From: Umbilicaria muhlenbergii | Taxonomy: Eukaryota; Ascomycota; Lecanoromycetes; Umbilicariales; Umbilicariaceae | Length of the DNA: 64,000 nt | Assembly (NCBI GenBank): GCA_000611775.1 | Contig: KK106982.1 | Coordinates: 6,690,495-6,754,494 of the forward strand | Direction: 5' to 3' | Shown: piece after piece, positions 1-64,000 of the stretch | Layout of the letters: every line of letters begins with the position of its first letter | Numbering within the stretch: position 1 is the stretch's first letter | The notes under the pieces: generated by a model | What the model was told of the DNA's origin: nothing | The model's database searches: none | What the model saw: only the letters and a program-made list of their open reading frames with translations | Translations under genes and position numbers: made by a program

Positions 1-187
1 TGTATTGCAGCTTTTGCTGAAGTGATTTTAAAATCTTTGCTGCAAAAAAAATGTCCTCTGCTGTATTTAATTTAAGACTTGTGTATCTTTGAACTTTAAT
101 GTGATCAGCGCTTCTTAAGCTCCTGCACTATAGAAGGAAGTCAGATCACATTCAAGCAGAATACTCAACAGCATCATGTACAATGAC

Positions 188-754
188 ATGAAAAGACATA
201 AGGACAGACTGAGGAGAAGAAAGAATGTCTTGTTTAAGAAGACTCATGAGCTCAGAAAGTTATGTAATGCTGATGTCATGATAATTATGTATGAAAGCGG
301 TCACTTCTATATGTATTGATCAACAGATCATAAGACTTGATCATTACTTATGAAGCAGATCATGAGTTCTTTACTTGTAAAAACTTTACAATACACTGAC
401 AAGAAATAGGAGATAACATATTCATTATCAGAATTGATGCTTTCAGAGCACCTTGAGCGTCAATCCTTCAAGCTCAAGGTATGAAAATTCAGGTGTAGAG
501 GTCTGAAAGTGTTCACTACAATGAGGTTGACTCTGGCAGAGAAACCTATGAACATGAGTGAGGAAGATATGAGCAAGACTGAGTCAACTTCAGGAGAGGA
601 TAATATGAACATTAATGCAGAAGATGTGCATGTGCAATCTCAGAACAAGATGCTGAACTCAGATCTGAAGCTGAATGAAGAACAATGTTACTTGATGCAA
701 TTAATGACAGCAGCAGGTTCAGAAGTGATCACAGAAGAAGTACAGAAGAAGTAG
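188..754 (+). pseudogene. MADS-box (SRF-type) small protein, relic
   Basis: The frame from ATG 188 gives a basic MADS core: RRRKNVLFKKTHELRKLCNA followed by DVMIIMYESGHFYMY. This matches the DNA-binding helix and first beta strand of the short SRF-type MADS proteins of filamentous ascomycetes, which bind DNA as dimers in the nucleus. The frame is interrupted by TGA at 317-319 (codon 44; probably a former Arg), by a second TGA at a probable former Trp in the following T-D-H-K-T-x-S segment, and by TAG at 407-409. The same frame reopens at 509-754 as an acidic, Met/Ser-rich tail ending in TAG-adjacent stop sequence. An intron between the halves is possible but not shown. Family call is good; function is very unlikely given the stops. 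Confidence 0.68.
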
Positions 755-779
755 TAATGTGCAACAAAGATCATTTATG

Positions 780-2129: not shown

Positions 2130-2189
2130 CTTTCAACTGTTTCATAAGTCTCTCTCATGTTGTTCATTCAGGACTATCCCTTGATTGCT

Positions 2190-2470: not shown

Positions 2471-2499
2471 AGCTTGTACAGCAAGAATTTGAATAGTTT

Positions 2500-10080: not shown

Positions 10081-11196
10081 ATGAGCATGACTGATGTTTA
10101 TAAAGAATGAAGAAACTTTGAAATTGAATTACAGTGAAACAGAGATATTTTTAACCTGATGCTAAAGGGCCTTCTTGTGTTGCTTGAAGGTGACTCTTCA
10201 GTCAAGATAAATCACTTGATGCCTCATGAAGGAGTCTGATTTGATGTGAGTGACATACAGGCGCAGTTCATGTTGTTAAAGGGAACAACAATTCTGAGTA
10301 AAGTGATTGAAGTAGCTGAGCTGCAAGAATGTATAACTTTCATTGTAGATTCACATATCACTTAACAAGTGGTGATCTGAAGAGTCAGACAATGCCTCAT
10401 TGTGAATAAAGAGAGGTGATGTAACTCTTCATTGTTATGATCACCATTGCCTTGTCAAGATGTGATGAGAGGTTTTAAGATGAAAAGGTCTTTGATGGCA
10501 GCTGTCAGAGTTGTTTTCATCAAGTTGATACTGAGTCTACTCTGAAGTTCAGAGTCAGATTCAGTGAATTGTCAAGAATGTTGCTCTGTTGAAGTCATGT
10601 TGAAGCCAAGCATGTTGCTCCGTTGAAGTTTGCAAAGAGCACTGACACTGAGGTTAATATGAGGATGTGCTAAGCAAAGTGTAGACAGTGATGATGTTGA
10701 TCACAGATGTGTATGCCAGAGTGAATGTCTTGAGGTTCACAGAATCTCAGTTTTGTGCGCTGATAAGAAAGTTTCAAGCGGGGCACCTCAGCAGTTCAAG
10801 GGTGAGGGGGCAGGCTGATGCACTGAATGAGGCAACACAGTGTTCATGTGTTGAAACCTCATGGCTTGAGAGCATATCAGTCTCTCAGTCCTGAAACTTC
10901 TTCAGCTCTACGTGGTGCCTGCGCATGATGTTGGTGGTGTCGAAGGCGGCAGGGAATATAACAAGGTAGATTGCAAGATGCACTGAGGGCTGCGTAGTGA
11001 AGATGTCAGCAGACAGGCAGACAGAGTCTCAAGTGATGCAGCATTCATGTGTTGCAGAATTGAATTGCCTGTTGTTATTGATGAGGGATGTTTCAAGAGT
11101 TTGATCAGGTTCAGAATGATGCAGTGTTCATGCATTGAGCAGTTGCCGCCTTGCCTGCTCATCAACACTGTCTCAACACTTATCCCCCTGACGTAA
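10081..11196 (+). pseudogene. Unrecognised 372-codon gene, TGA-interrupted relic
   Basis: A single frame from ATG 10081 to TAA 11194-11196 is interrupted mainly by TGA and once by TAA (in H-I-T-stop-Q-V-V-I). The N-terminal ~150 residues look like a folded alpha/beta domain: GLLVLLEGDSSVKINHLMPH, then TTILSKVIEVAELQECITFI. I do not recognise the family. The C-terminal half holds three loosely repeated units centred on tgttcatg-containing segments (about 10,839, 11,046 and 11,119) and keeps some TGG. The last ~290 bases overlap the SET-domain relic in antisense, so the two genes converge tail-to-tail or one C-terminus is spurious. Confidence 0.42.
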
Positions 11197-12074
11197 GGCC
11201 TGCGCTCAATCTCAGTCACGTCAAGAACAGTTGAGTCATAGGAGTGATTGATGAAGTGAGTGAGTTCACCTCTGTGTTGACTGTTGACAATCAAGATCTG
11301 CTCTTCAGTGTGATTGCGCTCTTCAGCAAAGTCATCAAGGGAGTAAAGGTAGGAATGCTTAGCAGAACTGATGACAGCCTCACAGACATTAACTTCATTG
11401 TGAGTAATGACTTCATCATGATAGGTGTCTATGAACTGGCCCTCTTTCAGATCAACAGAACAACAAAGGCCTAGAATGCTGATTAGTCTCAATTTTGAAT
11501 CTAGAGAGGTTGCATTAACTCAGCTGTGATAATCTGTCTTGAAGATCTTCAGAAGAACTTTGTGATCATGCTGAATTAAATGATTCTTGCAATTCACTCC
11601 ACAACTGCATTTCTCATTGTATTCAAGGATGTCATTGCGTGTGTTGAGGAACTGCTTGTGAAGACACTCTTTCTGATTGCTGCTTGCTGTGTACAGCTTC
11701 TTCCCACTGACAGTCACTGTCACATCATTTAAACATTCTCATTCAGCACTTCTCCTGTTGCAACAACTGCATTTCCCGTCACATTCAAGGAGGTGGTTGC
11801 ACGTGTCAAGGAACTGCTTGCAAAGACATCCTTTCTGATTGTCATGTGCTGTGTATGAGAACATCTTCTTCCCACTGACAGTTGCTGCAGCAGTCACTGC
11901 AGTGTCATCAAGACAGCTGCAGTAGAGGTACTTGCATCTGAGGTTTCTCTCATTCTTCAGGGTGCAATCACAGCTGTGGTTGAATTCTTCAGACATCAGA
12001 GTAGTTCCTGATGTACAGACATGATTGATGATGAATTTTAACCTGAAGTGGTGACCTGTCATTGTTGATATCAT
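10908..12074 (-). pseudogene. H3K9 methyltransferase-like (pre-SET/SET, DIM-5/Clr4 type), relic
   Basis: Three open stretches (12074-11739, 11723-11520, 11492-10908) share one frame separated only by TGA codons. The first has a Cys-rich pre-SET pattern (SCDCTL, LRCKYLYCSCLDD). A zinc-binding segment is present twice: C-D-G-K-C-S-C-C near 11,770 and NEKCSCGVNCKNH near 11,600, each preceded by V-S-G-K-K, so about 160 bp is internally duplicated. SET blocks follow: EGQFIDTYHDEVITHNE, then S-Y-L-Y-S-L-D-D-F and THFINHSYDS (normally R-F-I-N-H-S-C-D-P; the Cys is Tyr here). After this the sequence departs from the SET fold, so the catalytic C-terminus and post-SET are missing. Intact homologues methylate histone H3 Lys9 in heterochromatin. 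The family call is strong; the gene is broken. Confidence 0.78.
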
Positions 12075-12611
12075 TGTAGATGATTCAAGCTGATCTCCTT
12101 ACTCCTGTGATGAGGCAACAGCAGATCTGATATTTGGCTGCTAGAGCTGTCAATCATCTAGCAGGGGTTGTTATGGCGGCGGGCAACATTTACTTATCAG
12201 AACCCTTCATTATTGTGAATTTTGCCCTTGAGGCAGTCTGACGTTCTGCTGTCAATCAGCAAGATTCTCATAGAAGTCATGAAATGTATGTATAAAAAGT
12301 TTGAGTCTAAACACCTGAGGTTGCTTCTAAAGATGCCAGATAGAAGAATTCAGCATGCTGTTTCCTGACCTTTCTGAATCTCAAGCTCTTTTCTTTTCAG
12401 TCAGTTTCACCGTCATCACTGCTGTTCTTGAACTTTACAGGTGATTGTCACTAGATCCTCAGCTCCTTGCCTCAAAGAGCTGCAGACAACCTCATAATGA
12501 AGGAAAGAACCTTAAGTCACTTCTTTCAGATGAGTCTTTCCCTGAAGAGTCAAACTGAAAGTGACATGACTGCTGAGAGCATAATCTTGTGCTCTAGGTC
12601 TCTGTTGTCCC
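12075..12611. other. Spacer between divergent SET relics
   Basis: About 540 bp with no recognised gene, including a less-mutated GC patch near 12,165-12,190. It separates two oppositely oriented SET-domain relics that point away from each other. Confidence 0.4.
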
Positions 12612-18700: not shown

Positions 18701-19800
18701 GCTTATGACCGCATTTGTAGTGTATCTCTTTGTAGTTGCACATCATGATTCTTGTTGAGGGTGTGAGGAGTAATCTGTTATAAAATAAAGGAAGAGAACC
18801 TGTCTTTTTGTTTATATCTCAATCATAATCAGAAGACAGTAGGACACCCTTTCACTGTATGCATGCTGCAAAAGTAAACTGCAGTTTATCATAAGATGAT
18901 TCATTGACAACATACTGAGTGTTCTATGTTCTCTTTATTATCTGTCTAAGATCTTCCTCATTCAATGACATCATTGTCCCTGTCACTCTTGCTAAACTCA
19001 ATAAATGTTATCTTGACAGGTTACCTGTCATCTTTCTTGTTCTCTCTGATCATATCAACCTCCTCTCTCTCTACATTTGCATGATACACTGTCAGGGCAG
19101 CAACCTCATTAAAACATGCTCTGCATGAGATATCTCTACGCTAAAGCCTTAAGCAGCTGTTGGCATAAAGTAATGTCACAATGACAGAGGCATCTGCATG
19201 ACCTCATTCAATGTTGATGACAATGTTGTTAGGAATGTTCTTCAAGATGAACACAATAAAGGGATGAAGTAGTCAGATAGCAGTCACTGAAGGCATGCTC
19301 AAAGTTAACAGCAGTGCAGCTGATCAACTCCTCATTGAAATCATGAAAGTCAATTGTAGTAATAGTGAGGACCATTGAGGTCTACAGAAACACTTATTAA
19401 CTATTAATATAACTACTGATCACTTCACATTCTGATCAATGAAAAAGCACTCATGTTACACTGAACCCTGATTCAAAAGCATTCTTATAAATCTAAATCT
19501 CCTTGTATGCTTGATCATCAACTTGATCATTGAGTTCTTCAAGTCAATAATAGCAGACTATAAAGCAGAGCAGAAGATGATTCTCAACTTTAATAAAATG
19601 ATGTGAGTGAAGTAAAGACATGTAACACCTGACTTCAGTGACCTTAATAGAGAGGAGACAGATGAAGATAACAGTGAGAGCTGTGAGTAGATCACACCTT
19701 TACAGCTTTAAAGAGACAGATGTTCATGCTACAAGAGATCATCAGTGACATGATTGTCTCTTGAACAGAAGATATAATACCTTCTTTGTGCTTAAAACAC
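15770..19800. other. Long stretch without a recognisable gene
   Basis: Four kilobases of hypermutated sequence. Short open frames (15837-16118 minus, 16230-16484 minus, 17877-18104 plus, 18919-19128 plus) match nothing I know. Partly open, TGA-broken plus-strand frames at about 17,040-17,400, 18,170-18,360 (SAEDFHNFLQETNE) and 19,170-19,380 (SSAADQLLIEIMKVN) may be gene relics too decayed to name. Confidence 0.4.
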
Positions 19801-21237
19801 TTAGAAATCAAACATATCTTGATACTCTCAGTTGAACTCCTGTGCCTCCTTAATACTGACTTGCAATATAAGTCTCTCAAGCTTATTCACAGGTCGTGGA
19901 GTATCTCTGAGTTTGCAGCTTAATTCATAATCTTGATCTTGAGCCTTTCAATGTTCATTCAGCATTCAGTGTGTCAGCAATACATAGTCAGTCTGATTCT
20001 TCACTTTATTTTTCAATAAACTTTCATTGAATCAGAATAGTTTCTGATTGTTATTGTGATGATGATCACCAGTTCAGCCTCTTCTGACATGCTCAACTGA
20101 ATAGCTACACACCTCACTCTCAGGTGAATTGAAGAGCCAGCTCACTGAAACTGCATAATATGACTTAAAGCTGTATGAAATGTTGCTTAGTTCAAGGTCA
20201 AACCAATAGCTCTCCTTATCCCCGTAGGTGTATTTATATGTGTAGTCATTGCACACTGTAAATGTATTCTGCCAGCAGATGTGAAGAAGCGTCATGAGGA
20301 CTATTAATCAACTCTTGTTAAATGCAATGACTTCAGAATCCCCTTCTTCTGCAAAGTCATCAGAGTGAACATGAGAGTGCAGCAGTGTTGAGCTGAGTGA
20401 TTGAAATCTTATTTCATGTCATCATCATTCATGCTGAGCCTGGTATTGGCCTTGATACAGGAGGTGATTGTGAAATAGCAGAGTGCTTATGTTAACAAAA
20501 TTGCTATCCTGAAAGATGACTTCTGGTTTTTGCAGAAAGACAGCATCAGCATTAAGAAGTATAACTTGTTCATAAGTGCTGATGAGTATTGCAAAGGGCT
20601 TGACTGCAAAGCCTGAATGAGCCAGTTGCAGTGTTGAGTCATCAAGCACAGCAAGAATGTCTAGCATCTTAATGCTGACACTCTGTAAGGCAAGGGCTGT
20701 TTGATAATGAGAGGGTAAATTGACCTCCTCAGCATATGCAATCTGAATTGGTAGTTTGAAGTGAAGGACAGTTCATAGATTATGAATTAAATGACCTGCA
20801 TATCAAGCAGTCTTCTTCTCAGTGCTAATGACAATGCCTTTTGATTCAGGAATGCTTTGTTTTCAAAGAGCAGCAAAAGGTGCTGTGTTGTTTAACATTG
20901 ATGATGATTGAATGAAAGGGAAATATGAATATGTGACAGCCTCTATTAAATCAGACAAGGTTTTCAGTGACTTTGCATCAAGGCTGAATACATGATTGTT
21001 TCTGATCTGTTCTCAGTGTGTAATATGCTGCACATGCTGACTCATCCTCTCAAACTCTGAGTCATTGAGCTTATAATTGACAAAATCTTTCACAGTTCAT
21101 TTGATGATTCCTGTCATATCTTGAACTGAATCAACATGACCTCTCTGCTCAACCTGTTGATGATGACCTAGAAAAAGGATGTATGTAAATGCAAAAGAGG
21201 CAAGTAGAGGGAGGAGAGGGCGTTGCCTCAATATCAT
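19801..21237 (-). pseudogene. MNN1-family alpha-mannosyltransferase (GT71-like), full-length relic
   Basis: A single minus-strand frame of 479 codons from ATG 21237 to TAA 19801-19803. The N-terminus is a type II signal anchor: R-Q-R-P then L-L-P-L-L-A-S-F-A-F-T-Y-I-L-F-L. The catalytic region has FAVKPFAILISTYEQVILL, N-A-D-A-V-F-L-Q-K-P-E-V-I-F-Q (usual D-A-D metal motif, first Asp now Asn), T-L-L-F-H-N and EEGDSEVIAFNKS; the C-terminus includes YGDKESYWFDLEL and L-F-W-F-N-E-S-L-L-K-N-K. Homologues are Golgi enzymes adding terminal mannose to glycoprotein glycans. The gene is one exon with no frameshift; breaks are in-frame stops, mainly TGA at former Trp or Arg. A fragment of the same gene recurs at 33,505-33,790. 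Confidence 0.82.
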
Positions 21238-28347: not shown

Positions 28348-29328
28348 ATGAGTGAGACTGTGCACAGTCTCCTTGATCACTCACAGCTTGAATCACTCTC
28401 AATAGCTGAAGACTTTCCTCTTGACAAGAATGTCAGTGCTGAATTTTCAACAGAGATGAAGGTTATCTCTGCAAATAGATCTGAAACTTCAGCTTGAACA
28501 ATCATCACTTAAATCATCATTGAGCTTCCTGATAAAACAACAGCACAATATTTCATCAAATGTGCAACTGAAGAAGGTGAGCAGGTGATGATGAAGAGTG
28601 AGTTCAACACCATGACTGAGCTGTATAGAATCATGCCAATTATGGTTTCAAAGCCTTACTCATTTGGAAAGTGCAGCATTGAGAGTTCAGAGACATGGTT
28701 TTTCCTTTCACAGTTTGTTAACATGAGTGATGAGATCCCTGATCTGAATCAATTGTGCTCAAAGTTGACTCAACTACAACACACAAGTATCTCACTCACT
28801 GGCAAGTTTGAATTTCATATAACAACATGCCAAGGTCAGATTTCACAATCTGTTGAATGAGAAAGTAGTTGAACTACACTTTTCATCAAGATGTTGCAGC
28901 ATGTGATCAACCTTGACTTCAAGATCAATGGTGACTGAGAAGAGCTCAACAAGATTGAAAAGAGAGTTGTCTCTCACATCATTTCAAGGCTAATCAGCAT
29001 TTTGAAGACTGACAGTTGAAGTGTTAAGCTCAGCTTATGTCATGCTGATTTATGAGAAAACAACACAGGCACCTCATCTGAGACTGAAGACATCTACATA
29101 TTTAATTTCAGCGCACTATATGCTCACAATGAGTTTGAAATTAGGGATTGATGTTGCAACTACAACAAGATTCACAAAAAAGTCTACACACAGACTTATC
29201 TGCAGAACTACAGCCTCAGTGAACCTCAAGAGGAATGAGATGACTGAAATCAAATGTATTGTGTTTACTTCAACATCATCTACTCAGTCAATCACATCAG
29301 TCAGGGTCAGGCTGTTTGACAGCAGTAA
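28348..29328 (+). pseudogene. Fructosamine-kinase-like protein (FN3K/APH fold), full-length relic
   Basis: One 327-codon frame from ATG 28348 to TAA 29326-29328 with no frameshift. Blocks match fungal FN3K-like proteins along the whole length: A-Q-Y-F-I-K-C-A-T with the ATP-binding Lys, KPYSFGKCSIESSETWFFLS, LTGKFEFHITTCQGQISQSV, a catalytic-loop equivalent H-A-D-L-stop-E-N-N (usually H-G-D-L-W-x-G-N), I-F-N-F-S-A-L-Y-A-H-N-E-F-E (usually F-D) and Y-C-V-Y-F-N-I-I-Y-S-V-N-H. Homologues phosphorylate fructosamines on glycated proteins. About ten in-frame TGAs occur, most at conserved Trp (S-A-W, V-E-W, S-S-W, D-L-W, E-E-W) and a few at Arg; one TAA (28510) also occurs. One Trp keeps TGG (E-T-W-F-F). 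Confidence 0.85.
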
Positions 29329-29399
29329 GTAAGTAAGCAGTGTGATGTGTCAGATGCATCTGCTTACTTCTATCTCAGAGTGTATGATGACATGTTCTA

Positions 29400-29640
29400 C
29401 CTCATTGACAAGTATGCACTGTTTTCAGACAGTGATGCGCCCTCAAGGCTTGATGATGCCTGTCAAGTGTCTTTGTCAGCAGAGCGTGACCATATGAGAG
29501 TTTAGCTTCAGAAGATTGTTTGAAGGACTCATGACTCATGAACAGTTGAAAGGCAGAGAAACAAGGAGAAGAGGAACAGAATAATTCATCATTCAAGTGC
29601 TGAAAACTTTAATGTAGTGTAAGCTGACTGATCATGTTAT
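29400..29640 (+). pseudogene. Duplicate of the FHA-kinase C-terminal end
   Basis: About 29,515-29,640 repeats 27,120-27,250, sharing tgaaaggcagag and atcattcaagtgctgaaaac then tttaatgtagtg. It follows the fructosamine-kinase relic directly, so a kinase fragment has been duplicated about 2.4 kb downstream of the first copy. Differences are largely transitions with a few small length changes. Confidence 0.55.
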
Positions 29641-33790: not shown

Positions 33791-33799
33791 TTTAACTCA

Positions 33800-39249: not shown

Positions 39250-42200
39250 CTCTGCTGTCCTTCTACAGAAGCTTCATATGTTAAGTGCATTTTATACACT
39301 TTGCTCATGTCTCACTCTGAAATTCACTGATCATACTCTTTTGATCATCTCTTTCACTTTACCTTATATCAAATCTCTTTCTTATATTTTCACTTGTTCA
39401 AGATTTCTTCAATCTCATACACCTCTTTGTTGTCAATCAACTCTGGTGGTTGCAAAGTCAGCATAAACTTGTCATCATATCAGCGCTCATACAGCTTTAA
39501 GTAGGATACATGAAAGACATTATGAATTTAATAATTTGATGATAGAGATAGTCAGTATGCCTGTTTCTCAATTAAATCTTGTACTTTAAATAATTTAATG
39601 AACTTGTAAAACAACTTTCTGCTTGAGCGTTTCTGTCATAAGTTCTTCATGAATAGCATTATCAATTCTCTCACATTATAAGTCTTCAGTTTATGTTTAA
39701 CATCATAATATTTGACCTGAGATTTAATTACATTTTCTCATCATTGTGACAGTGCTTTTTATATGTCATGAAATTGTTTCACTTGATTTTTTGCTGCAGG
39801 TACCTTTTCTTTTCTGAAGTCATCCTCAACTTTGAATCTCACTTCTGAATGATAAGCATACATGACATAAAAAGAGCTACACTCTATTGATGCCTGTGCT
39901 TCATTATTGTAAGCAAATTCTGTCAGAGGTAAAAGGCTCATTCAGTTGTCTTGTTCATCTGAGCAATAACAGTGAAGATAATGCTTTAAGGTTTAATTCT
40001 GCTGTTCTGTCTGTTCATTCATCTGCAGATGAAAGATGATGCTTAGCTGATGCTTCATTCTTAGATAGTAGCACATTTCTGATCAGAAAGCACTTGTGAA
40101 AACTGATCTCTAATCAGAGACAGCCCCTTTCAGTACACTGAATCAGCATATTATTTCCTCATAGAACAAGTCAGTCAACTCTGTTGCTGTAATCATTTTT
40201 ATGATTTGAATATATTGAGCCATTTTTGTATACTGATTCATAATCATTAAGATCACATCATAAACGCAATCCTTGCACTTACTTGACAGCAAGTCAGTGA
40301 TAAAATTCATCATGACTTGCTGTCATGATTCTTCTGACTGAGGCAACGCCTGTAGCTCATCATAGGGATGATGTTTAAGCACTTTCACCCTTTGACAGAT
40401 GTCACATGATGCAATATAATCTTTAACATCTTGGCTCATATCAATTTAATAATATTTGCAGTCAATTAATTCAAGAGTTCTTTCTACCCTGAAATGCTCT
40501 GTCAAGGCATCATCATGATGATGTTTCAAGATCTCTGCCCTTACTGACTTTTCTTTCAGAATGTATATTTGTTCCTCATGAAACAGAAGGCCTTCAGAGT
40601 CAAATCTTTAAAAACTTTCAGCTTTAATCTTGTGCTTCACTGATATATAATCAGCGTTGCGTGTCGCTTCTACAAATGAATCATCATTTTGTAGAGTTCA
40701 AATCAAATCCCTTAAGAGTAAACTCAGGCTTTCATCAGCTGTTTCATGAATGACAAGATCTCTTATCATCACATGTGAAATAAGTTGTTTGCAATCAACA
40801 ATTTCAGTGACAGGGTTAAGCTGTTTCACAGTTACATCACAGTCATCATGAGCAGATGATTTGTCATCACTCCTTCAGCATTTTTTTTGAAGTTTAAGAT
40901 CTTTAATCTTGATTATTCTTCTCACCCCTGTGAGCAACTGCCTCACAATAGAAGCATATCTGAGTGAGAATATGTTCACAAGAGTGATTAACTTTCTCTG
41001 AAGTGTTGAGAGTAATTTCTTCATGATTTCACTCACCTCTTTGACATCTCTGTAGTCTGGTCACCTCAACAGCACATCAGCAGGGTTGATTTTTTCAAAT
41101 TGATGCAAGATATTGAAATCAAAAGCAGTGAACTTCATTGCTCATCATGCTTGCCTGTCATTCAATTCCTTCACGTTCATAAATCCTCATAAATTGTTAT
41201 GATCAGTTAATACCTCTATGATATGACAACTGCCTTTGAGGTAGTGGCGTCAGTGTTTAAACATCATAATGATGACAAGAAGCTCCTGATCATGAGTTTT
41301 ATATTAAGTCTCTGAAGGAGACAGCTTTCTTAATTAAAATGCAATTGAATGTCACTTCCTGTTATTCAACAGCTGAGACAGGATGTCAGTGAGCTTAATG
41401 ATTGACACATCAATTTTCACCTGTATTCATAACTTCAGATCAAAGTGAACCAGGATAAATGCTGTCATAAAGATTTCACAAAGGTGGTCAAACACCTCCT
41501 TTGCATCATTTGAGAATTTAAAAGACTTAAACTTTTTTCCATCCTTGCTACCTTTCATAAGGTTTGTCAAGGGGGCCGCAACTTGTGAATAGCACTTAAT
41601 AAAGCATTTATAAAAGTTCACAAAGCTCAGGAAGACTTGTACTTACTGAAAAATACTTAATAATAATCAGTCCTGTATGATGTTCACTCATCATGAATTC
41701 ATCACTACGCCTTCAGTTGTGATAATAAACCCTAGGAATTTCATCTTGATAATGAAGAATTCACACTTCTTAGAGTTCATGTAAAGTTGAAATCAACAGA
41801 GTCAATTTAACACCTGCTTAACATGCTCTCAGTGTTGCACTGATGATTCTGAGTATATAAGGATGTTGTTTAAATAGACAACACAAAAGACATTCACAAG
41901 CTCTGTTAATGCTCAGTTGATGTAAGTCTGAAATATAACTGAAGTGTTGATCAATCTGAAAGACATGATCATATACTCAAAGTGACTGTAACACATGTGA
42001 AACACTGTTTTTCACTCATCACTCTCTTTTATGCAGATACAGTGATAAGTGTTCTTCAAATTTAGCTTCATAAATAGCTTGACTCCACTAAGCTGATTCA
42101 ATGTTTCACTTATAAGAGGTAACAGGTGCCTGTTCTTGATGATCATCTTATTTAACTCTTGATAATCAACACATAACTGCAGTCCTTCATCTTTCTTTGA

Positions 42201-44170
42201 AACAAAAAGGATGAGTGCCCCTGCAAGGCTCATAAAATGATGAATTCAACCTTTTATTAAGATGTCATTCAAGTATTCTCATAACACCTCTAATTCAGTA
42301 TTGAAGAGGTTATACAAAGAGTCATAAGATGAATCTGTGCTGTTCAGGTCAATTGCATGATCACTGATTTTATGAGGTGAAAGGAGGTCAGCATTCTCTG
42401 TTGAGAACACATTCACATAATCAGTGTACTCCTCAGGTAAAGCTTGTGTTATATCAGCACTTTGTATGTGCACCTTTGATGCAGCATCATCACTCAGACT
42501 GACTCATATCACAATGTAGACAGCAAGATGATCTTGAATCTTCTTTATGAATTCATCAGGTGACTGTAACTTGATAAACTGCTCCTCAATGTTGAAGTGT
42601 CACGCCTTCATTCTGCAGTTGATTCACACATGTTTAGTCTTCAAAGTGAGAAGTTCAAGGATAAGGGGTGATCCTGACTTGTTCAAAATATAAAACACAT
42701 GTTCACATTCTTGAGACTGTTCTCAACTGTTGATAAGCTGATAACACACATGATAAGCACTGAAGCAGTAAGCCTTCTGATCATTTAAGAATTAAGATTA
42801 CAGCAATGAGCCCTTCATCTGAGTCAATTGATGCTCAATAATGAAATGTTGAGAAATCACATTGACTTCAGCTCCTGTATTCAACAAGGCTTGCATGAGT
42901 ATGACATCATCATTGTGAAGGACTTGTTCATCAACAATTAAATTAAACTCTGAGGCTACTTTTGTTCAGCACTTCAGTGATGTGAAGCCTTCACTGAAGT
43001 GTTTTCATTTTTTGATGCTGAAACAGCTGCAACTGAGGTCTTATTCAGATCTGAGTTTTTCACAGGCTGTGAACAATCAGGGGAATAATGTCCCTTCTGA
43101 TTGCAATTTCAACAAGTCATGTGTGATAAGTTTTTTGTTTCAGGAGCTTTTGCTGATCTGCTTTCATATTTCTTATCTCACTTGCTCTTCATCTTGCCCT
43201 CATCAGGCTTATGATCCTTATTCTCAGCAGGCTTTGATGATGACTCAAGTTTACAGCTGAAGGTAACTGTCATATTAAAATTTGCTTTTGATTTCACAGC
43301 GCCTCTCAAACATAGATTATTCTTCAGGCATGCAGTCAAGGTGATGATTTTCTTTCAAATTATGAGTAAGTCTTGATAATTCATCAAGGCTGCATGAACC
43401 TCAAGCTTTAATTTTGTGAAGAAGTGAGTCCTCATGTGCTTTTCACTGTAAGGAGGTAATTGAGCTTTCAAGGTGCTTAAATAACTATTGAAAGCTTAAA
43501 CTGATTGATGAGGTAGTTGAACAGCATCATTATACAACTGAGTAATGTGAAGCTGATGATTCACAGGGTCCTCAATAATGTTGAGCAGGAATTTCATAAA
43601 ATCATCTCAGGTAACAGTGAAATAATCTTTAATCTCATCATCTCACAGTCACGCCTCCTTTGATTCACACTTTAAGTATTACATGACATAAATTACCTTA
43701 TCCTCCTCATGAGGGAAATCAGCTGAGTTAAAATGAAAGGTATTTCTTGCATCTCATATTTAATTCAGGTGCTCTTTCATGTTCTTGTCATGATATAGTG
43801 GCAACTCCTTTGCCTGAATCCTTGGTTGTAAATTTCATATTGACAGTGTTTCATCAGCGCAGTGCTTGCTCATTATGAACTCAGCATTCATAAAGTTAAG
43901 AAATCTCTCAGCTGAGGTATCAACATGAGTAGCAGGATCTTTGAGTAAGTTGATTTTCAGTGTTAAAACTTCTGTTCAGAGCTGCTGCAACTCTTTTTGC
44001 TTAAGAAGTTCATCTCACTGTCATCTCACTTGCATGATCTCATCATTAATGTTGCACATCATTTCACCTGAGGATCCTTCACTCATGAGGTTCACTTCAC
44101 TGATGTCAGAGGAAATGAGTGATGTTTCATGATCATTTTGTTGATTCTTCATCATCATGTCTTGTTCTGC
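39250..44170 (-). pseudogene. gag-pol region of element 1 (fossil)
   Basis: Identified by family blocks only: zinc knuckle (G-H-Y-S-P-D-C), a reverse transcriptase segment (LCVDYQELNKMIIKNRHLLP), an RNase H entry segment (NFYKCFIKCYSQVAAPLTNL), an integrase segment (PLTEFAYNNEAQASIE) and a C-terminal chromodomain-like part. Homologous elements encode a Gag that packages RNA and a polyprotein that copies and integrates it, the chromodomain directing insertion to methylated-H3K9 chromatin. The region is broken at many points. Confidence 0.85.
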
Positions 44171-44250
44171 TTCAGAAGTTTAATGTAGTTGGTTTTAAGT
44201 CTGCATCTTATCTCAGATCACCACTCTTTGAAAGGTAGAGTTATTAAAAC

Positions 44251-44464
44251 TGTAAGATTATAATGTCTCTTACTAGAAAGGGAAGTATAGTTGAGGTTCA
44301 TGACAGCATGAGATATAAATGTATAAAGGTTATATGATCCTAACTATATAGAACTAATAACTAAGGAGTGAAAGGGGGAGCAGTGAAGCAGCACAGAGTT
44401 TTATTATGTGCACTGTCAAGTCACTTAAAAAGCATTAGCCTAAATGTGTTATTATATCATGACA
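44251..44464 (-). repeat. 5' LTR of element 1
   Basis: 214 bp with tgtaagattata...atcatgaca ends. Shares agtatagttgaggttcatga and gaactaataactaaggag with the partner LTR. Confidence 0.9.
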
Positions 44465-47712: not shown

Positions 47713-47991
47713 TGTCAGAGTCATCATATAATAGTACAACAGTACAACAAGTACAACACTATAGTATGACACTATAGTATGACATTATATAGACATGATG
47801 ACTCAGCGCTTAATGCCTTGACATCAAGTAAAACTCTTCACAAGGAGGTTCAGAAACCTGCTTCCTCAGCAATCAGTTTTGATCACTAAATAGAAGATGT
47901 ATAACCACTGCATTAACTCTATCATGACTTTTGCCTATGACACTCCGTTCAAACACCATTATGATGACTGTCATACACTCAGCCTCTTACA
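47713..47991 (+). repeat. 5' LTR of element 2
   Basis: 279 bp starting tgtcagagtcatcatataat and ending agcctcttaca. It carries short tandem words around actatagtatgaca. The LTR continues into an open frame (F-A-Y-D-T-P-F-K-H-H-Y) conserved in both LTRs. Confidence 0.92.
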
Positions 47992-47999
47992 TATTGATC

Positions 48000-50900
48000 A
48001 CTCAGTACCTTCAGGTGAACGGTCATGTCAAAAGCATAAGACATGATGACATCAACATTTTGATCTCATCAGGTCAGTGAAACAGTTGACAATCAAGCTG
48101 AGGCAGGCTCTTCAATTAACAGGTTTACATTATCAGTCATTAATATTCCTACTTCTGACCTCCCTGATGATGATGAACATATCACTGCAGGCAACCTCAA
48201 TGACATCATTGAAGACCTTGAGGCAGTCACTGCTCATAATCAGGAGGTCATCAAGCGTCAGTGATTACAATTATGATGTGTATGACAAGAAATTGAGTTT
48301 GAGGACAATAAAAGAAAGCTTCAGAAGTTTAATCAACATCTGCAAGAAGATCCTTCAACTACAATTACAGTAAACTCAGGGAACAACACAGGTTCATCAC
48401 ATGAATTATGATGTTGAGTTATGACAGACATCACACCTCCCCCTTTTTAACACCTTGTAAAGCCATGAGAGCCTCACCTCTATGCAGGAGACGTCAAAGT
48501 CATGAGATGAAAACTTTAAAAATACCTGAATGAAATCAATCAGAATCAGGAGCTGATGTCAGAGCAATTTCTTATCAAATGAGATTTCATCATCTGAGCA
48601 GGCACTTATCTTGAGAAAACAGTCATGAGTGACTGACAGAAGCAAAAGGAGCAGCATGATCACATTTAAATCATTTACAACAACTTTTTAAAGATTTTAA
48701 AGAAGAACCTATCCCCTGATGAAGACATGAATGAATGAAATATCATTGCTTTCAATGCAGTTGAACTCTGTAATCATGATACAATCACCTCCTGATATGA
48801 CAGATTATCAGAACTCTATCACTTTCTTTCAGCTTCACATAAGGAAATCAGTGAGATGCTCATTTGAGACTGCTGATGATCAAGACTTTCTCATCATGTC
48901 TTGACTGAACTATGATGTTGAGATCTGACGCAGGTTGCAAGACAGTCAGTGCAGGAAATTTCAGCACATCTTGATGTCATCATCAATCATGAACCGTTTC
49001 AAAGCCGCTCAGACACCAAAAAGGATTGTTAAAGCAAAACTGACAACAACAACAAAAGTATGACACAGACGTCGTACTATGACAGAAAAGAATCCCTCAC
49101 TGAACAATAAACAACTCACACTCAATTCACTCAATTCAGTTGTGAAAGAGAGAACAACTCATGAGGTTTTTATCATGAAAGTGACTGCAATCAGAGTCAG
49201 AATCCCAAGGTTATCATTTCTAGTCAATGCAAACCTGAATCATGAATATGACATGAGGAAATTCCTATGGAAAAAGGTGAGGCATACCACAGCACACTGA
49301 GTATTCACTGTTAATGAGAAGAAGGCACTGAAGAACATTCTACATATGAATAACCTTTTCATTATGAAACACTTCATAGGACCGTCAGACCTAGTGATCA
49401 ATATGAAAGAATATACCCTTCAGATGAACTCATTACAGTATGAAAAAAATAGTGATGTATAAAACACACTACCTCCTGAATATCATGACTTCACAGACAT
49501 ATTTCAGATGACTGAGAAGCAGTCTTTGCCTGAGAGAGGTTCACATGATCATGTCATTGACTTGAAATCAGAGCAGCAACCTTCATTCAGAAAGTTATAC
49601 TCAATGTCTTCAGCTGAGCTTGATGTACTGAAGGTATATTTAGATGACATCATGAAGACAGACATAATTCACAAATTAATATCACCTGCAGCTTCACTCA
49701 TTATGTTTGTACTGAAATCAGACGGCAGCCTATGATTAGTCATTGATTATAAGCGCTTGAATGATATTACTATTAAGAATCATTACTCATTATCACTTAT
49801 ATCAGACATGTTGAATCATCTTCAAGGAGCTAAGAAGTTCACTAAGCTGAACTGCAAGGATGCATATAATCAAATATGAATCAAGGGTGAAGATGAGTGG
49901 AAAACAGCATTTTGAACATGATTCAGGCTGTTCAAATATTTTGTCATGTCTTTCAGTCTCATGAATGCTCCTGCTACATTTCAAGCCTTCATTGATAAAG
50001 CGCTTAGTGAGTTCCTAGACATCACATGCATAATCTACTTGAATGATATCTTGATCTTTAGCAAAGATGAGTTTAAGCACAGAGAGCATGTATGATAAGT
50101 ACTAGATGCACTATGACGTCATGATCTTCATCTTAAGATCAGTAAGTGCTCATTTAATGCAATGAAAGTGAACTTTCTAGGATTCAAGATCAACATGAAA
50201 GGCATGTACATGAACCTGAAGAGGATTTAAGCTGTTGAAGAATGACTGCTCTCAGAGAATGTTCATGAATTGCAGATTTTTCTAAGCTTCATCAACTTCT
50301 TCTGAAGGTTTATAAGAGATTATTCATGAATTGCAGCATCACTGTTAAACCTCCTGAAAACAGGAAGAAATAAAAAGAAGATTAAGATTGTATTAAGTTC
50401 TTTTTCAACTCACTGAACTGCTCCTCATCAAGACATTGAAGGAAAGCAGAGCAGCTCAATCTCATTGCAGAGATTTAACACAGGCTATTCAGCATGCAGC
50501 TCACAAGTCAGAGGAGAGTTATAACAAGAAAACATCATACCTGTCTCTTTTTCACTTTCAAGAGTTGCATTAAAAGCATTTAATGCTCTGAAGGAGACCT
50601 TCATGAGTGCTTCATTACTACATTACTTCAATGAAAACAAACTCATGAGGGTTGAAATGGACGCCTCTGAATTCACAATTGATGAAATCTTGATGCAACA
50701 CTTTGAGGTCAACAGTCAATTGCACTGATTATCAGTTACTTACTACAGCAAGAAGCTGCTAGATACTGAGACTTGATATGATACAGGTGAGCAAGAGCTC
50801 CTTGTCATCATGAAAGTCATGCATCATTGACAGCACTACTGTCAGGGTGTCAGACATCAAATTGTTATACTGACTGATCATGCAAACCTTGTTTGGTTCA

Positions 50901-53674: not shown

Positions 53675-55002
53675 ATACGCTGCACCATGGGTTGGGTTTT
53701 ACCCAGTGGGTTTGGGTTTGGGTTGGGTTTGGGTTGGGTTTTGGGGTGGGTTATACATGTTGAAACACAACACAGAAAAAACACAACCCATTTAACCCAA
53801 ACCCAGAAAATTCTGGGTTAACCCAGTACATACAAATAGTTATGATAGTCTTTATGGTAGTCAAAAAAGTCAGTTCAAAAGGCGCCTTCTCAAGTCATTT
53901 TCAAGGTCATGTTTTGAGGCCGTCATCAAAGCCATTTTGGAAGCCGTTTTGGAAGCCGTTTTNNNNNNNNNNNNNNNNNNNNNNNNNNNNNNNNNNNNNN
54001 NNNNNNNNNNNNNNNNNNNNNNNNNNNNNNNNNNNNNNNNNNNNNNNNNNNNNNNNNNNNNNNNNNNNNNNNNNNNNNNNNNNNNNNNNNNNNNNNNNNN
54101 NNNNNNNNNNNNNNNNNNNNNNNNNNNNNNNNNNNNNNNNNNNNNNNNNNNNNNNNNNNNNNNNNNNNNNNNNNNNNNNNNNNNNNNNNNNNNNNNNNNN
54201 NNNNNNNNNNNNNNNNNNNNNNNNNNNNNNNNNNNNNNNNNNNNNNNNNNNNNNNNNNNNNNNNNNNNNNNNNNNNNNNNNNNNNNNNNNNNNNNNNNNN
54301 NNNNNNNNNNNNNNNNNNNNNNNNNNNNNNNNNNNNNNNNNNNNNNNNNNNNNNNNNNNNNNNNNNNNNNNNNNNNNNNNNNNNNNNNNNNNNNNNNNNN
54401 NNNNNNNNNNNNNNNNNNNNNNNNNNNNNNNNNNNNNNNNNNNNNNNNNNNNNNNNNNNNNNNNNNNNNNNNNNNNNNNNNNNNNNNNNNNNNNNNNNNN
54501 NNNNNNNNNNNNNNNNNNNNNNNNNNNNNNNNNNNNNNNNNNNNNNNNNNNNNNNNNNNNNNNNNNNNNNNNNNNNNNNNNNNNNNNNNNNNNNNNNNNN
54601 NNNNNNNNNNNNNNNNNNNNNNNNNNNNNNNNNNNNNNNNNNNNNNNNNNNNNNNNNNNNNNNNNNNNNNNNNNGTTGAAGCCGTTTTGGAAGCTGTTTT
54701 TTGAGGCCGTTTTTAGGCCGTTTTGGAAGCCGTTTTTTGAGGCTGTCGTCGAAGCCGTTTTGGAAGCCGTTTTTCAAGGCCGTTTTTCAAGGCTGTTTTG
54801 GAAGCCGTTTTGGAAGCTGCTTTGAAAGCTGTTTGAATGAGTCATATACGTGAACTTGAACTGGGTTAACCCAGTGAAAAACCCAACCCAAACCCAAAAA
54901 AACCCAACCCAGTGTGACCCAACCCAAAAAAAACCCAACCCAGTCTGGGTTGGGTCACAATAGTCAAAACCCAACCCAAACCCAACCCATGGTGCAGCGT
55001 AT
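53675..55002. mobile_element. Inverted-repeat DNA element with G-rich ends and a 12-bp minisatellite core
   Basis: Left end atacgctgcaccatgggttg then ggttt; the right end is its reverse complement, ending at 55,002. A 6-bp direct duplication, tgatga, flanks it (53,669-53,674 and 55,003-55,008). Inside the TIRs are long runs of GGGTTGGG/GGGTTTGGG on the left and CCCAACCC on the right. The middle is a minisatellite of gaagccgttttg units (12 bp) with variants such as gaggccgtttt, interrupted by a 712-base assembly gap. No coding capacity; frames across the gap are artefacts. TGG, CCA and CpG are intact, so the element escaped the mutation seen around it. It lies inside LTR element 2. Confidence 0.82.
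53963..54674. other. Assembly gap (run of N)
   Basis: 712 unknown bases, flanked on both sides by the same 12-bp minisatellite, so the gap is probably unresolved repeat. The stated length may be nominal. Confidence 0.95.
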
Positions 55003-56704: not shown

Positions 56705-56709
56705 TGAAG

Positions 56710-60509: not shown

Positions 60510-61853
60510 CATGCCTGTGAGATCACATGTGCTGTTGAGGCGCCTGATGCAGCCCTGATAAAGGAATTTAATCACAAGTTTCAGGTCACCTTGAACATCC
60601 TTTATTACATTCAGGAGCAGCTGAAGATGATCATGTTAACATATCAGAAGATGCAGGAATGAGCATTCTTTTTACTTCATTACTTTAATAACTGCTTCAC
60701 TGAGCTGCTGCCACCTATTGCACAGAAGGAGATGCAAGATGAGTTAAAACATCACATTTTAAATATCTCAGACACTGAGCGCATGAGAGATGTCAGACAG
60801 ACATTGCATGCACAAAACTTGAGAGAAAAGATGATCAAATTAATGATGATCAAGTGAATGAGCATTCTGATGAAGCAGCATTTATCTATGATGCACTTGA
60901 GACTGCAGATTCATTCAGAGAGAGTTCAGCCTGCTTAAAAGCCTGTCAAGCTTCAATCCTGAGAGATCATGATGATTGACAGGACTGAAGATGACGTGTT
61001 TATCCTCATTGAATGAGTGCAGCACAAGTCACATGTGATGAAAGAGATTGACTGTAAGTGCTTTTTAAATATTGATGCTCTCATAGCTCTGCTCAGCCTG
61101 AAGAATAAATCTGAAGAGTTTCATGTCCTTCATTGCTTCACATACTTTCATGATCAGAACAAAAATTGATATGAGATGATATTTGAACTCTCAGCTGCAT
61201 CTGTGATCAGAGAGTCATTAAAGCTGATATCATTTACTGTCATATTCACAACACAGGGCATGAGGAGATCATGATCAACATTGAGAGACAAGTTTAAACT
61301 GATGCACGCCTTCACTGCCTCAATCACTGAGTTTCACAAAGTAAAATGACTGAACAAAAACATCTCATTCTCAAATATCATCTTCTTCTCACCACAAGGA
61401 TCATCCTCTGAGAAGCATATTTTAAAGTTGTATGTAATCAGATTCAATCATAGCTAACTGATGTTTGAGAGAACTGACAGACCTTATGACATTAAGTTTA
61501 AGAATTATTAACATTCAAAGTACCTTAAAAATGAGTTATGATTTAATTTCAAGTTCAATTACTACAGTCTCAGCTTGATGTTGCTTGAGATTAAGTATTG
61601 AGCATCACTTCATGAGATGACACAGTGTTGGCGTGGTTCATCTGAAGAAGAATTTCGTGACTGACTTTTAAAGAAAAGAGTGCCACAATTGAAAGAAATG
61701 ATGAGTGATACGTATTTTAAAGCAGTGAATGTGTGTTTGAGAAGTGACTTTGAGGCTAATGATGAAAGTGAGGATGAAGTTGATGATACTACAATGTTGC
61801 ATCTTGAGTTTGAAAAGTTAGTCATGGCACAGCTTGCCAAGTGTTCAACTTAA
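60510..61853 (+). pseudogene. DUF7580/HET-S-associated kinase-like protein, relic B
   Basis: One frame from at least 60,543 to TAA 61,851-61,853 (about 437 codons) without frameshifts. Start: E-F-N-H-K-F-Q-V-T-L-N-I then QEQLKMIMLTYQKMQE (helical). Mid: TEDDVFILIE and KNKSEEFHVLHCFTYF. Kinase-like end: F-H-K-V-K-stop-L-N-K-N-I-S-F-S-N-I (normally H-K-V-x-W-L-H-K-N-I), FNYYSLSLMLLEIKY then S-L-H-E-M-T, KKRVPQLKEMMSDTYFKAVN. This matches the degenerate kinase fold found beside HET-S/prion-type signalling in ascomycetes. Interrupted by about ten TGAs and three TAAs; the TAAs fall at probable Gln or Arg-family sites such as Y-x-H-S-K-Y-L. One TGG survives (C-W-R-G). An acidic tail ends the protein. 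Confidence 0.75.
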
Positions 61854-62811
61854 TTAATTGAGATATCAATTGAAATGTTTGTCTCTGTGAAGCAAGAGTC
61901 TTGACAATTTAAGCTTTAATAGCTAAATGACATAAGGTAAGACTCTGATTTCACATATTATTAGAAATTTGATTTACCTCCTTAATAGACGCATCCTAAC
62001 TCAGTTGTGCAGAATTGTGCAGTGTTTCATCAATTCTCTTTTCTCAGTCAGCTCAGCCTCTACTAAAGCTTAAGTGTTGCACAGTTGCGCTTTAAGTGAA
62101 ATCAGGTAATTTTTTTCCTAACTGCTCAACTGTCATGCTCATTTTTGTCTCATGTGTCTCTAGTCTGATAATTAAGTGATGAGATGATTGCCCTAAGTGA
62201 ATGTTCACAATCAAGTTTGATTATAATATTCAATTGTGATGATTCTGATATAAATGTAACATTAAAAGAAGGCGGCCTGCCTTCAGTACATGCTGAGGAT
62301 TACACAAGTGATTTCTGAGGAATTGATTTCATGATGAGAGGTAATTTTATAATAGGAAGTAAGATGAGCATCTGAGTTGTGAAATTATATTGTAACACTA
62401 CGTGGCATTGAATCACACTCTTCAATGATTGTCATGCAAAATGCAATAAGCTGCACTTGTTACAATAAAACGTCTAGAGCGTGAATTCTCACACACAACT
62501 TAAGTGTAAATATGTGTATGCATGAATTAAACATACAAGGATCAGGTGCTGTTCAATTCACACAGAGTGAAAAGACACAGCTTCTCTATGTATGTGTTAT
62601 CATGACTAACTGTCTTTTTTCAAGCCTTCACCTTTTGAAACTGAATATTCTAGATCTTGATATATTAGTGATAAGTTTATACACTTTCACTATTATCAAG
62701 GTCAAAATGGCTGCCATTACACTCATAGAAGTCTCAACATCTCAGACTCATTCATTGTACAATTACATCAATTTGTGATGTCACTTTCACTTCTCTGCCT
62801 GTATCTCCGGC
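61854..62811. other. Intergenic; no gene recognised
   Basis: Short inverted words around ttgtgcag/ctgcaca-like motifs occur near 62,000-62,130. An 88-codon plus frame at 62512-62778 has no known similarity. Confidence 0.35.
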
Positions 62812-64000
62812 ATGACTACATCTATAAATTCAGAGCAGTATGATTTCATTGTATTTCTCAAAGTGTGTCAGAACCTAGAGATCAACTTTCTTTCAATCAC
62901 ATGACAGCTGACCCTTGATCATCTTGAGATAAGTGCACAGAGTGAGGTTCTTCAGTCACTGATAAATCTAAGCTTAAGCTTTGCCTTCAATCATGTGAAA
63001 GTCTCTAGGTATCTCTCATGAGAGGAGAAAGACACAATATATCAAGCTTTGATATCTCAGACCTCAGTCTTGAGACATTCTGAGATTCATGATCATTCAA
63101 ACATCAATAGTCTCATCAGTGTATGCTGGGATGTTAAACCGGGGGAAGATATTCAGAGTCAAGAATACATTCAGCCCTTAAGAGATGTTCTACCTCAAGA
63201 CAACTTTGAAGCACAGTAGAATACTTCATTCAGCAAGTGAAAAGTCTGACCTGTGTTAATATTTAAGAAATCAAAGCATGATGATTTAAACTGCTTCATG
63301 AGGTCAGCATCTGAATCAAACCTGAATATCACAGAAAGATTGAAGTTATGTGCAAATATCACAAGTGAAATTAAAAGCCTGCATGATAACTGTAAGGGGA
63401 GCAATACTACCTGGTATAAGCATTGAACTAAACTTGTGAATAAGCATCATACATGAAGATATCAAGCCTCAGAACATGATTGTCTTTGAGGAAAAATTAA
63501 GATTATATACTGCAAAATTATCTGACCTTGATCATTCTATCCTTTTCTGTAATGATGATAACTGTGCACTGATGACATGTACTAAACCCTGACAAGCTTC
63601 AGAACACAGTGACTGTAAGACATATCAATTATTTGATATGATCAGTATGAAAGTCTACTCCTTCAGCATGATATGCTTATGACTTTTATTTCATGAATGA
63701 CTATTTGAGCTGAGCATTACCTTCAATCTTCATGGTATGAAAGTGAAAGGCTTGAATCATCTAAATGCATTAAAGAATGAAGAGGGTATGTCTGAGATCA
63801 CTTAAAACTTGACATGAAAAGTGCAAGAGCTATCACTGAATCAAATCCTGAATTTAACCAGATTCTTTGACTTATGCTTAGCACTCAATAATGTACACTG
63901 AGGCTCTGATATGCGCAGTTTACTGCAACTTCTTAGTGATGAATTCATTACATCAACAGCCTTGATGGCTACTGCAACTGTTACAAGAACATCAAGCAAT
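62812..64000 (+). pseudogene. Ankyrin-type kinase relic C, runs off the window
   Basis: From ATG 62812: DFIVFLKVCQNLEINFLSIT then an L-I-N-L-S-L-S-F-A-F strand, S-V-L-R-H-S-E-I-H-D-H-S-N-I then SLISVCWDVKPGED (Trp kept as TGG), PVLIFKKSKHDDLNCFM hinge, catalytic loop IIHEDIKPQNMIVF (Asp and Asn retained), T-A-K-L-S-D-L-D (DFG altered) and V-Y-S-F-S-M-I-C-L. This is the widespread Pezizomycotina kinase found N-terminal to ankyrin or other repeats in Leotiomycetes and relatives. There is at least one frame change (about 63,160-63,250) and many TGA codons. Downstream domains would lie beyond 64,000. Confidence 0.75.

What the first reader, a model, noticed from the sequence alone, without database searches (positions are those of the whole stretch)
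1..64000. Hypermutation with an unusual context: TGG/CCA and CpG lost, CpA kept
By eye, the first 1,000 bases hold one TGG and no CCA, while TGA and TCA are everywhere; most of the window looks the same on both strands. Gene relics show CGA-to-TGA, TGG-to-TGA and GG-to-GA type changes. Classical ascomycete RIP targets CpA and raises TpA; here CpA is abundant, so the context seems to be CpG plus CpC (especially CCA). Known non-CpA variants exist in other fungi, but this combination looks distinctive and could mark an undescribed RIP-like process or a different DNA methyltransferase preference.
Basis: partly seen in the sequence, partly recalled or inferred. Interest (0 to 1): 0.75.

Follow-up and report, generated by a model that had tools for sequence, protein, structure and literature searches.

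The report
Repeat hypermutation reading two bases ahead
About two fifths of the sampled DNA of this fungus is scarred by cytosine-to-thymine hypermutation resembling the fungal defence called RIP, but the cytosines hit follow another rule than the textbook one, with the next base favoured in nearly the reverse order and an A two bases on read as well, so the usual RIP indices do not flag it.

Summary
Observation confirmed. In 63 of 64 one-kb bins the window is hypermutated: CGA/TCG 0.02, CCA/TGG 0.25, TGA/TCA 2.5 of expectation; CpA 1.50, TpA 0.58. Ten of 19 sampled stretches of the same 34.8-Mb fungal genome lack this; the species is not identified. Repeat-copy alignments show mostly C-to-T change, set by the two bases 3' of the C: +1 G>C>T>A (about 10:5:2:1), +2 A over T, C, G (1 to about 0.2). 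So the rule is C-[G>C>T>A]-A, not CpG plus CpC. It recurs against an unbroken paralogue, in young transposon ends and in stops of reverse-transcriptase relics (682 TGA, 106 TAA, 15 TAG; 150 of 877 candidates scored). Rates from pairs without the window predict its trinucleotides (r 0.96). CpA-based indices score it negative. RID-, DIM-2- and DNMT5-like genes are present. Best reading: a RIP-like process with changed target preference; enzyme unproven. Repeat-dependence is not shown: two short multi-copy families mostly escape, and one 4-kb piece gave no match elsewhere.

The parts
1..64000 (.). hypermutated compartment (63 of 64 1-kb bins), GC 37.5% against 52% in ten normal stretches
28402..29507 (+). 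relic of a fructosamine-kinase-like gene; relative with an unbroken 396-aa frame at C1:10380447. G>A 85 and C>T 73 against A>G 15 and T>C 17; CCA 34 of 47 and CGA 26 of 40 changed to T
19682..20853 (-). relic of a Mannosyl_trans3-like gene; relative with an unbroken 558-aa frame at C4:2145617, another low-GC copy at C1:6460327
33504..33796 (-). second fragment of the mannosyltransferase relic (two TGA stops)
10908..12483 (-). relic with a SET domain match; related DNA of normal GC at C4:963545 (whether that is an intact gene was not established, one search failed) and of low GC at C4:1274527
39400..44426 (.). mutated repeat also present in L008 (C1:4000001, 4.7 kb, 89.5% identity, 441 transitions, 40 transversions) and L015 (C3:2000001)
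47713..48878 (.). mutated repeat shared with L007 (84%, 144 transitions, 18 transversions)
30284..31248 (.). AT-rich repeat with inverted arms; 40 other places at 93-98% identity; little hypermutated
53676..55001 (.). little-mutated, probably young transposon-like island: 23-bp terminal inverted repeats, 8-bp target duplication TTGATGAA (53668-53675 and 55002-55009), inner 12-bp minisatellite and N run

Best explanation
The window lies in a compartment (79 of 188 sampled kb bins) of a filamentous fungus genome scarred by a RIP-like process: cytosines on both strands are converted to thymine, and the choice of cytosine is set by the two bases 3' of it, C-[G>C>T>A]-A. Shown: the compartment, the C-to-T direction, the two-base rule, its sufficiency to give the window's composition, and the same changes in ends of a probably young transposon. 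Inferred: that a C5-cytosine methyltransferase does it, because the context lies on the 3' side; most likely the RID-like enzyme (C4) with a changed target recognition, the DIM-2-like (C6) or DNMT5-like (C5) enzyme being alternatives; that it comes in bursts; and that duplication triggers it.
For: In 16 of 24 repeat pairs of 600 bp or more Ti/Tv is 4.8 to 72. Logistic fit on 17133 C sites (2793 C/T) in 52 pairs: +1 and +2 drops 997 and 1191, +3 83, -1 68, the other four positions below 12. With nine AT-rich-family pairs left out, +2 A raises the odds 5.3-, 5.7- and 7.9-fold after A, T and C and 29.6-fold (4.0-221) after G, as one process would. Polarised data agree: four-copy singletons, unbroken paralogue against relic, transposon ends with CCA 26 changes at 3 sites, CCC 0 at 2 sites. 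Forward simulation from normal DNA with rates from pairs without the window: r 0.956-0.961 over 64 trinucleotides.90-.97 for five other mutated stretches. Borders sharp on the 500-base scale in L006, L007, L018. 149 of 150 scored reverse-transcriptase matches (877 candidates) carry stops: TGA 682, TAA 106, TAG 15. RID-like, DIM-2-like and DNMT5-like genes.
Against: Repeat dependence is not shown: window 4000-8000 matched only itself (the tool warns that common words are skipped); in an AT-rich family with 40 further places at 93-98% the copies held differ by 245 transitions and 282 transversions, which makes 8 of the 24 long pairs fall at Ti/Tv 0.7-1.6; 64 of 100 listed transposon ends are unchanged. 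The relic's paralogue L035 is unbroken, whereas RIP usually hits both copies (recalled). In the four-copy set the reverse singletons are also many (A>G 195, T>C 194 against G>A 266, C>T 235); I read them as sites lost in the other three copies. The 16-cell table departs from a strict product (LR 61.6 on 9 df). CCG 0 of 25 does not fit. In the window-only pairs CGA is 5 of 8, below CCA and CGT. C/T and G/A changes alternate more than chance in 19 of 24 pairs (runs z up to 5.2), unexplained. No enzyme was linked to the mark; no mating or methylation data.
Confidence: 0.62

Rival explanations
1. Cytosine methylation of silent DNA (DIM-2 and/or DNMT5 placing 5mC at CpG and C-N-A sites) followed by slow spontaneous deamination over long times; no active mutagenesis.
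For: A DNMT5-like and a DIM-2-like gene are present (DNMT5 as CpG maintenance enzyme is recalled); CpG is the top dinucleotide. Deamination of 5mC is the explanation offered for CpG signatures in fungi (passage of PMC4352252).
Against: Copies 87-91% identical differ by 216 transitions to 3 transversions, 236 to 4, 70 to 1 and 582 to 11, which looks like fast change rather than slow decay; the +2 A effect holds at non-CpG sites too.
Confidence: 0.22
2. Two overlapping processes: CpG loss (methylation) plus a separate C-N-A mutator.
For: The additive model is worse than the 16-cell table (LR 61.6 on 9 df); CGT, CGC and CGG are hit without +2 A.
Against: +2 A raises the odds after all four +1 bases (5.3, 5.7, 7.9 and 29.6 with 4.0-221); a single product rule gives r 0.965.
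Confidence: 0.12
3. A cytosine deaminase, UV or other damage rather than a methyltransferase-linked mechanism.
For: C-to-T transitions on both strands.
Against: AID/APOBEC-type deaminases and UV read the 5' side (recalled); here -1 has a small effect (coefficients -0.38 to 0.28) and -2 none.
Confidence: 0.03
4. Ordinary base composition, codon usage or assembly error.
For: None found.
Against: Two-humped distribution, normal stretches in the same contigs, direction of change against an unbroken paralogue.
Confidence: 0.01

Closest known systems
RIP of Neurospora crassa (RID/DIM-2)
   Same: C-to-T on both strands in repeat-rich tracts, stop codons in transposon relics; RID-like and DIM-2-like genes present
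   Different: N. crassa order CpA>CpT>CpG>CpC (passage of PMC5496416); here CpG>CpC>CpT>CpA plus an A at +2. Window TpA/ApT 0.61 and composite index -1.04, on the non-RIP side of the thresholds
RIP of Trichoderma reesei
   Same: CpG among the preferred sites (CpA about equal to CpG; passage)
   Different: CpA is preferred there and CpC least; no +2 rule in the passages seen
TpCpG hypermutation of Microbotryum/Pucciniomycotina
   Same: CpG-centred trinucleotide target, transposons (passages of PMC5381629)
   Different: 5' T is part of the target and the product is TTG/CAA there; here the C of CGA changes (TGA/TCA), the 5' base is nearly neutral, and CCA and CTA are hit as well. A Masc2-type enzyme is the only Dnmt1 found there (passage of PMC4352252)
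CpG plus CpA signature of Tuber melanosporum; rise of CA and TG dinucleotides noted for Uncinocarpus reesii
   Same: ascomycetes with RID and DIM-2; a CpG signature (Tuber) or a CA/TG rise that CpG change would give (my inference for U. reesii) (passages)
   Different: no +2 dependence or CCA target mentioned in the passages seen
DIM-2-linked CpA mutation in Zymoseptoria tritici
   Same: methyltransferase-linked C-to-T; CGA and CGC preferred for 5mC in CG context (legend of a supplement figure)
   Different: mutations there fall at CpA, not CpG (passages)

Membership tests
RIP (repeat-induced point mutation) | C:G to T:A transitions greatly exceeding other changes, both strands | tested here: met
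   52 pairs: 13972 transitions to 1426 transversions with both strands counted, i.e. 6986 to 713; 16 of 24 long pairs at Ti/Tv 4.8-72, 8 of 24 (AT-rich family) at 0.7-1.6
RIP (repeat-induced point mutation) | CpA preferred, TpA product enriched, composite index above 0 | tested here: not met
   CpA least mutated; window TpA/ApT 0.61, substrate 1.66, composite -1.04; thresholds from a passage of PMC7882544
RIP (repeat-induced point mutation) | confined to duplicated sequence | tested here: inconclusive
   transposon and gene relics are mutated, but one 4-kb piece gave no match elsewhere and two short repeat families mostly escape
RIP (repeat-induced point mutation) | RID-type methyltransferase present | tested here: inconclusive
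   C4:3522938 has a PF00145 domain with PPCQ and GN motifs, EQT where ENV is usual (EQT as RID hallmark is recalled; source paper not held), no BAH match in the 662 aa held, a GTAAGT...TTTAG intron at the one in-frame stop. Its best solved relatives are weak and named DNMT1 (E 9e-11 over 70 residues). No RID sequence was at hand for a tree
RIP (repeat-induced point mutation) | occurs premeiotically in the sexual cycle | not testable with these tools
   needs crosses
TpCpG hypermutation (Pucciniomycotina) | 5' T dependence, TCG to TTG | tested here: not met
   -1 T coefficient 0.07; TGA/TCA at 2.5, TTG/CAA at 1.18 of expectation
CpG methylation decay with DNMT1/Masc2 | changes confined to CpG | tested here: not met
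   CCA 267 of 371 and CTA 374 of 870 variable
CpG methylation decay with DNMT1/Masc2 | Masc2-type enzyme present | tested here: inconclusive
   four PF00145 matches: one DIM-2-like, one DNMT5-like, one read as RID-like, one broken piece; none shown to be Masc2, none ruled out by a tree

The most novel reading that the evidence does not exclude
A RID- or DIM-2-type enzyme whose target recognition is shifted one base downstream: it reads A at +2 instead of +1 and disfavours CpA, giving a repeat defence whose commonest nonsense product is TGA (from TGG and CGA) and which CpA-based RIP indices cannot see.
Probability: 0.45. Interest if true: 0.78.

Novelty: new variant of a known kind. Interest (0 to 1): 0.62.

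Why it matters
RIP surveys that score TpA/ApT and CpA+TpG would put these tracts on the RIP-negative side although 79 of 188 sampled kb bins are hypermutated. A 2025 kingdom-wide survey concludes that RIP-like defences share a CpA preference (section 9 of PMC12543289 read); this genome looks like an exception. A natural variant with a clear, quantified two-base rule offers a way to find which part of RID or DIM-2 selects the cytosine, by comparing enzymes of fungi with different signatures.

Tried and rejected
Species: not identified. The nearest solved relative of the DIM-2-like protein is a 1456-residue DNA methyltransferase (that it is N. crassa DIM-2 is recalled); the PDB tool names no organism, and the 15 of 59 papers listed by a search on genome size did not hold the sizes asked for. 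The first four-copy alignment had one copy in reverse orientation (part C) and was replaced. Strand tracts: runs z positive in 19 of 24 pairs, so no long single-strand tracts. tRNA scan 0 (bacterial settings), Rfam 0 at gathering score. Simulated alternatives: classical CpA r -0.43, uniform C 0.48, C-N-A with equal N 0.56, +2 only 0.64, CpG only 0.76, CpG+CpC 0.78, +1 only 0.78, CpG+CCA 0.87; most of these use crude on/off rates, so the comparison favours the measured table. Structure prediction was not used.

Rows dropped before counts: pairs under 82% identity or 200 bp (85% and 250 bp), self-overlaps, sites with gaps, N, or unequal bases within two positions; L001, L004, L005 (overlapping loci); L034-L040 came later and are not in the pair set. 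Pairs share families and history, so they are not independent; the pair bootstrap ignores that. 150 of 877 reverse-transcriptase candidates were scored; 40 of 292 for the AT-rich family; 100 of 112 transposon ends were listed and used.

Papers: ten searches. Passages seen: PMC4352252, PMC5381629, PMC4014442, PMC10234303, PMC5496416, PMC8016269, PMC7882544, PMC7862722, PMC4595289, PMC5870242; PMC3203195 gave no hits for the terms; PMC12543289 abstract, passages and section 9. Clutterbuck 2011 seen only as a reference. Two papers asked for by DOI are not held.
Full report
What was checked. The window is G000:C2:6690495-6754494 of a 34,788,950-base, 7-contig genome. On both strands CGA/TCG stands at 0.019 of expectation, CCA/TGG at 0.25 and CTA/TAG at 0.36, while TGA/TCA stands at 2.5; CpA is 1.50 and TpA 0.58. 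Of 19 evenly placed 10-kb stretches ten are normal, six mutated and three mixed. The index (TGA+TCA)/(CGA+TCG+TGG+CCA+1) separates bins into two groups: 109 of 188 below 2, none from 2 to 3, 79 above 3. Borders are sharp on the 500-base scale (L006 near 2.0 kb, L007 at 4.0-4.5 kb, L018 near 6 kb).

What changes. In 52 repeat pairs at 82% identity or more, transitions outnumber transversions 6986 to 713 (13972 to 1426 with both strands counted). Of the 24 pairs of at least 600 bp, 16 have Ti/Tv of 4.8 to 72 (for example 216 to 3, 236 to 4, 582 to 11) and 8, from an AT-rich family, have 0.7 to 1.6. Taking each C shared by two copies, or C in one and T in the other, with two equal bases on each side, the share that varies is CGA 31 of 38, CCA 267 of 371, CGT 88 of 173, CTA 374 of 870, CGC 88 of 250, CGG 15 of 44, CCT 373 of 1394, CAA 460 of 2077, CCC 30 of 191, CTG 253 of 1976, CTT 328 of 2605, CTC 157 of 1533, CAT 193 of 2701, CAC 70 of 1061, CAG 66 of 1824, CCG 0 of 25. 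Leaving out the 12 pairs that include the window gives nearly the same order (CAT and CAC change places); in those 12 alone CCA is 28 of 34, CGT 13 of 17, CGA 5 of 8. In a logistic fit over eight flanking positions the drop in likelihood ratio is 1191 for +2, 997 for +1, 83 for +3, 68 for -1 and under 12 for the other four. Pair-bootstrap intervals: +1 G 1.04 to 1.64, A -1.51 to -1.18; +2 A 1.24 to 1.54. With nine AT-rich-family pairs left out, the +2 A odds ratio is 5.3, 5.7 and 7.9 after A, T and C, and 29.6 (4.0 to 221) after G.

Direction. Three polarised sets agree. (a) Four copies bearing a reverse-transcriptase match: single-copy C-to-T changes at CCA 12 of 16, CTA 25 of 54, CAA 36 of 145, CAG 4 of 143; CGA had no usable site. 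Over all singletons G>A 266 and C>T 235 stand against A>G 195 and T>C 194; I take the latter as sites already lost in three copies, which this set cannot prove. (b) The window's fructosamine-kinase relic against a relative with an unbroken frame (L035): CCA 34 of 47 and CGA 26 of 40 have become T, CAN 24 of 158, while T-to-C runs at 32 of 539. More distant relatives (L036, L039, L002) show the tendency more weakly; in L039 CGA is 9 of 30, below CGC 13 of 22. (c) A transposon end of 23 bases: of 100 listed ends (112 found) 64 are exact; of 44 changes in the others 42 are C>T or G>A: CCA 26 at 3 sites, CGT 6 and CGC 5 at 1 site each, CAT 4 at 2, CAA 1 at 1, none at the CCC (2 sites), CTG, CAG or CAC sites. 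CCA and CCC differ only at +2.

Sufficiency. Sixteen rates taken from pairs, applied to ten normal stretches until GC reached that of the window, reproduce its 64 trinucleotide ratios at r 0.965, 0.956-0.961 with window pairs left out, and r .90-.97 for five other mutated stretches. Alternatives do worse over trinucleotides: classical CpA -0.43, uniform 0.48, C-N-A with equal N 0.56, +2 alone 0.64, CpG only 0.76, CpG+CpC 0.78, +1 alone 0.78, CpG+CCA 0.87; over dinucleotides CpG+CpC (0.978) and +1 alone (0.980) come close to the measured table (0.990). A product of one +1 factor (G 10.3, C 5.5, T 2.4, A 1) and one +2 factor (A 1, T .23, C .18, G .14), CCG left out of its fit, gives 0.965. That explains why CpA looks kept: it is the poorest target and also the product of CpG change on the other strand.

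Genome-wide footprint. A six-frame search for reverse transcriptase found 877 candidates, 150 scored, 149 with internal stops: TGA 682, TAA 106, TAG 15. CpA-type RIP would be expected to give TAA and TAG (from CAA and CAG; reasoning). The usual indices give TpA/ApT 0.61, substrate 1.66 and composite -1.04 for the window, further from RIP than the normal stretches (0.67, 1.25, -0.57).

Enzymes. Pfam PF00145 matches four places: a DIM-2-like protein on C6 (methylase, DUF7893, BAH just below cut-off; best solved relative E 4e-173); a protein on C4 that I read as RID-like from its EQT motif and bare methylase domain, though its best solved relatives are weak and named DNMT1; a DNMT5-like protein on C5 (methylase, SNF2 and, in the next frame, a RING match below cut-off; nearest solved chain Rad8, 7r76, which I recall as a fungal DNMT5); and a broken piece on C1 that resembles the latter by eye. 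Which enzyme marks the cytosines is inference; the 3'-side context points to a methyltransferase rather than a deaminase.

What does not fit neatly. A 4-kb piece of the window (4000-8000) matched only itself (the tool warns that very common words are skipped), so it is an old repeat beyond detection, or masked, or not a repeat. A 965-base AT-rich repeat has 292 candidates, 40 scored, with 40 other places at 93-98% identity; nine pairs of held copies differ by 245 transitions and 282 transversions, though among its few sites CGA (6 of 12) and CCA (3 of 8) still vary more than most others. The element at 53676-55001 is barely touched. Short length could explain both (a length threshold is recalled for Neurospora), untested here. 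The process may be weak or rare today.

Known or new. Passages show CpA (most ascomycetes), CpA with CpT (Botrytis, Sclerotinia, Magnaporthe), CpG with CpA (Tuber), TpCpG (Microbotryum), CpA about equal to CpG (T. reesei), and more CA and TG in Uncinocarpus. Nothing in the listings of the ten paper searches or in the passages that I read states a rule with A at +2 and CpA least favoured; the 2011 ascomycete survey was not read, and preprints are not in the library. I therefore call it a new variant of a known kind.

Noticed in passing
window 53676-55001: Transposon-like element with 23-bp terminal inverted repeats and an 8-bp target duplication (hAT-like by that size, recalled), rich in GGGTT-type repeats and a 12-bp minisatellite; 112 ends genome-wide within 2 mismatches.
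   Followed up: partly
window 30284-31248: AT-rich repeat with 174-bp inverted arms, 40 other places at 93-98% identity, largely spared by the hypermutation.
   Followed up: partly
L028 (C1:6527376): Broken methyltransferase fragment that resembles the DNMT5-like gene by eye, beside a frame that looks like the N-terminus of NACHT-type proteins (recalled).
   Followed up: no
G000:C3:3998714-3999376 (-): The only one of 150 scored reverse-transcriptase matches without a stop, in a 544-aa frame; might be a domesticated single-copy gene.
   Followed up: no
window 10908-12483: SET-domain relic with related DNA of normal GC at C4:963545 and of low GC at C4:1274527; a chromatin-type gene seems to have been copied and mutated more than once.
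   Followed up: partly
L007 4501-5500: One-kb stretch of 12-19% GC at the border of a mutated tract, much lower than the mutated tracts themselves.
   Followed up: no
window 2281-2500: Remnant that reads like an ankyrin-repeat gene by eye.
   Followed up: no
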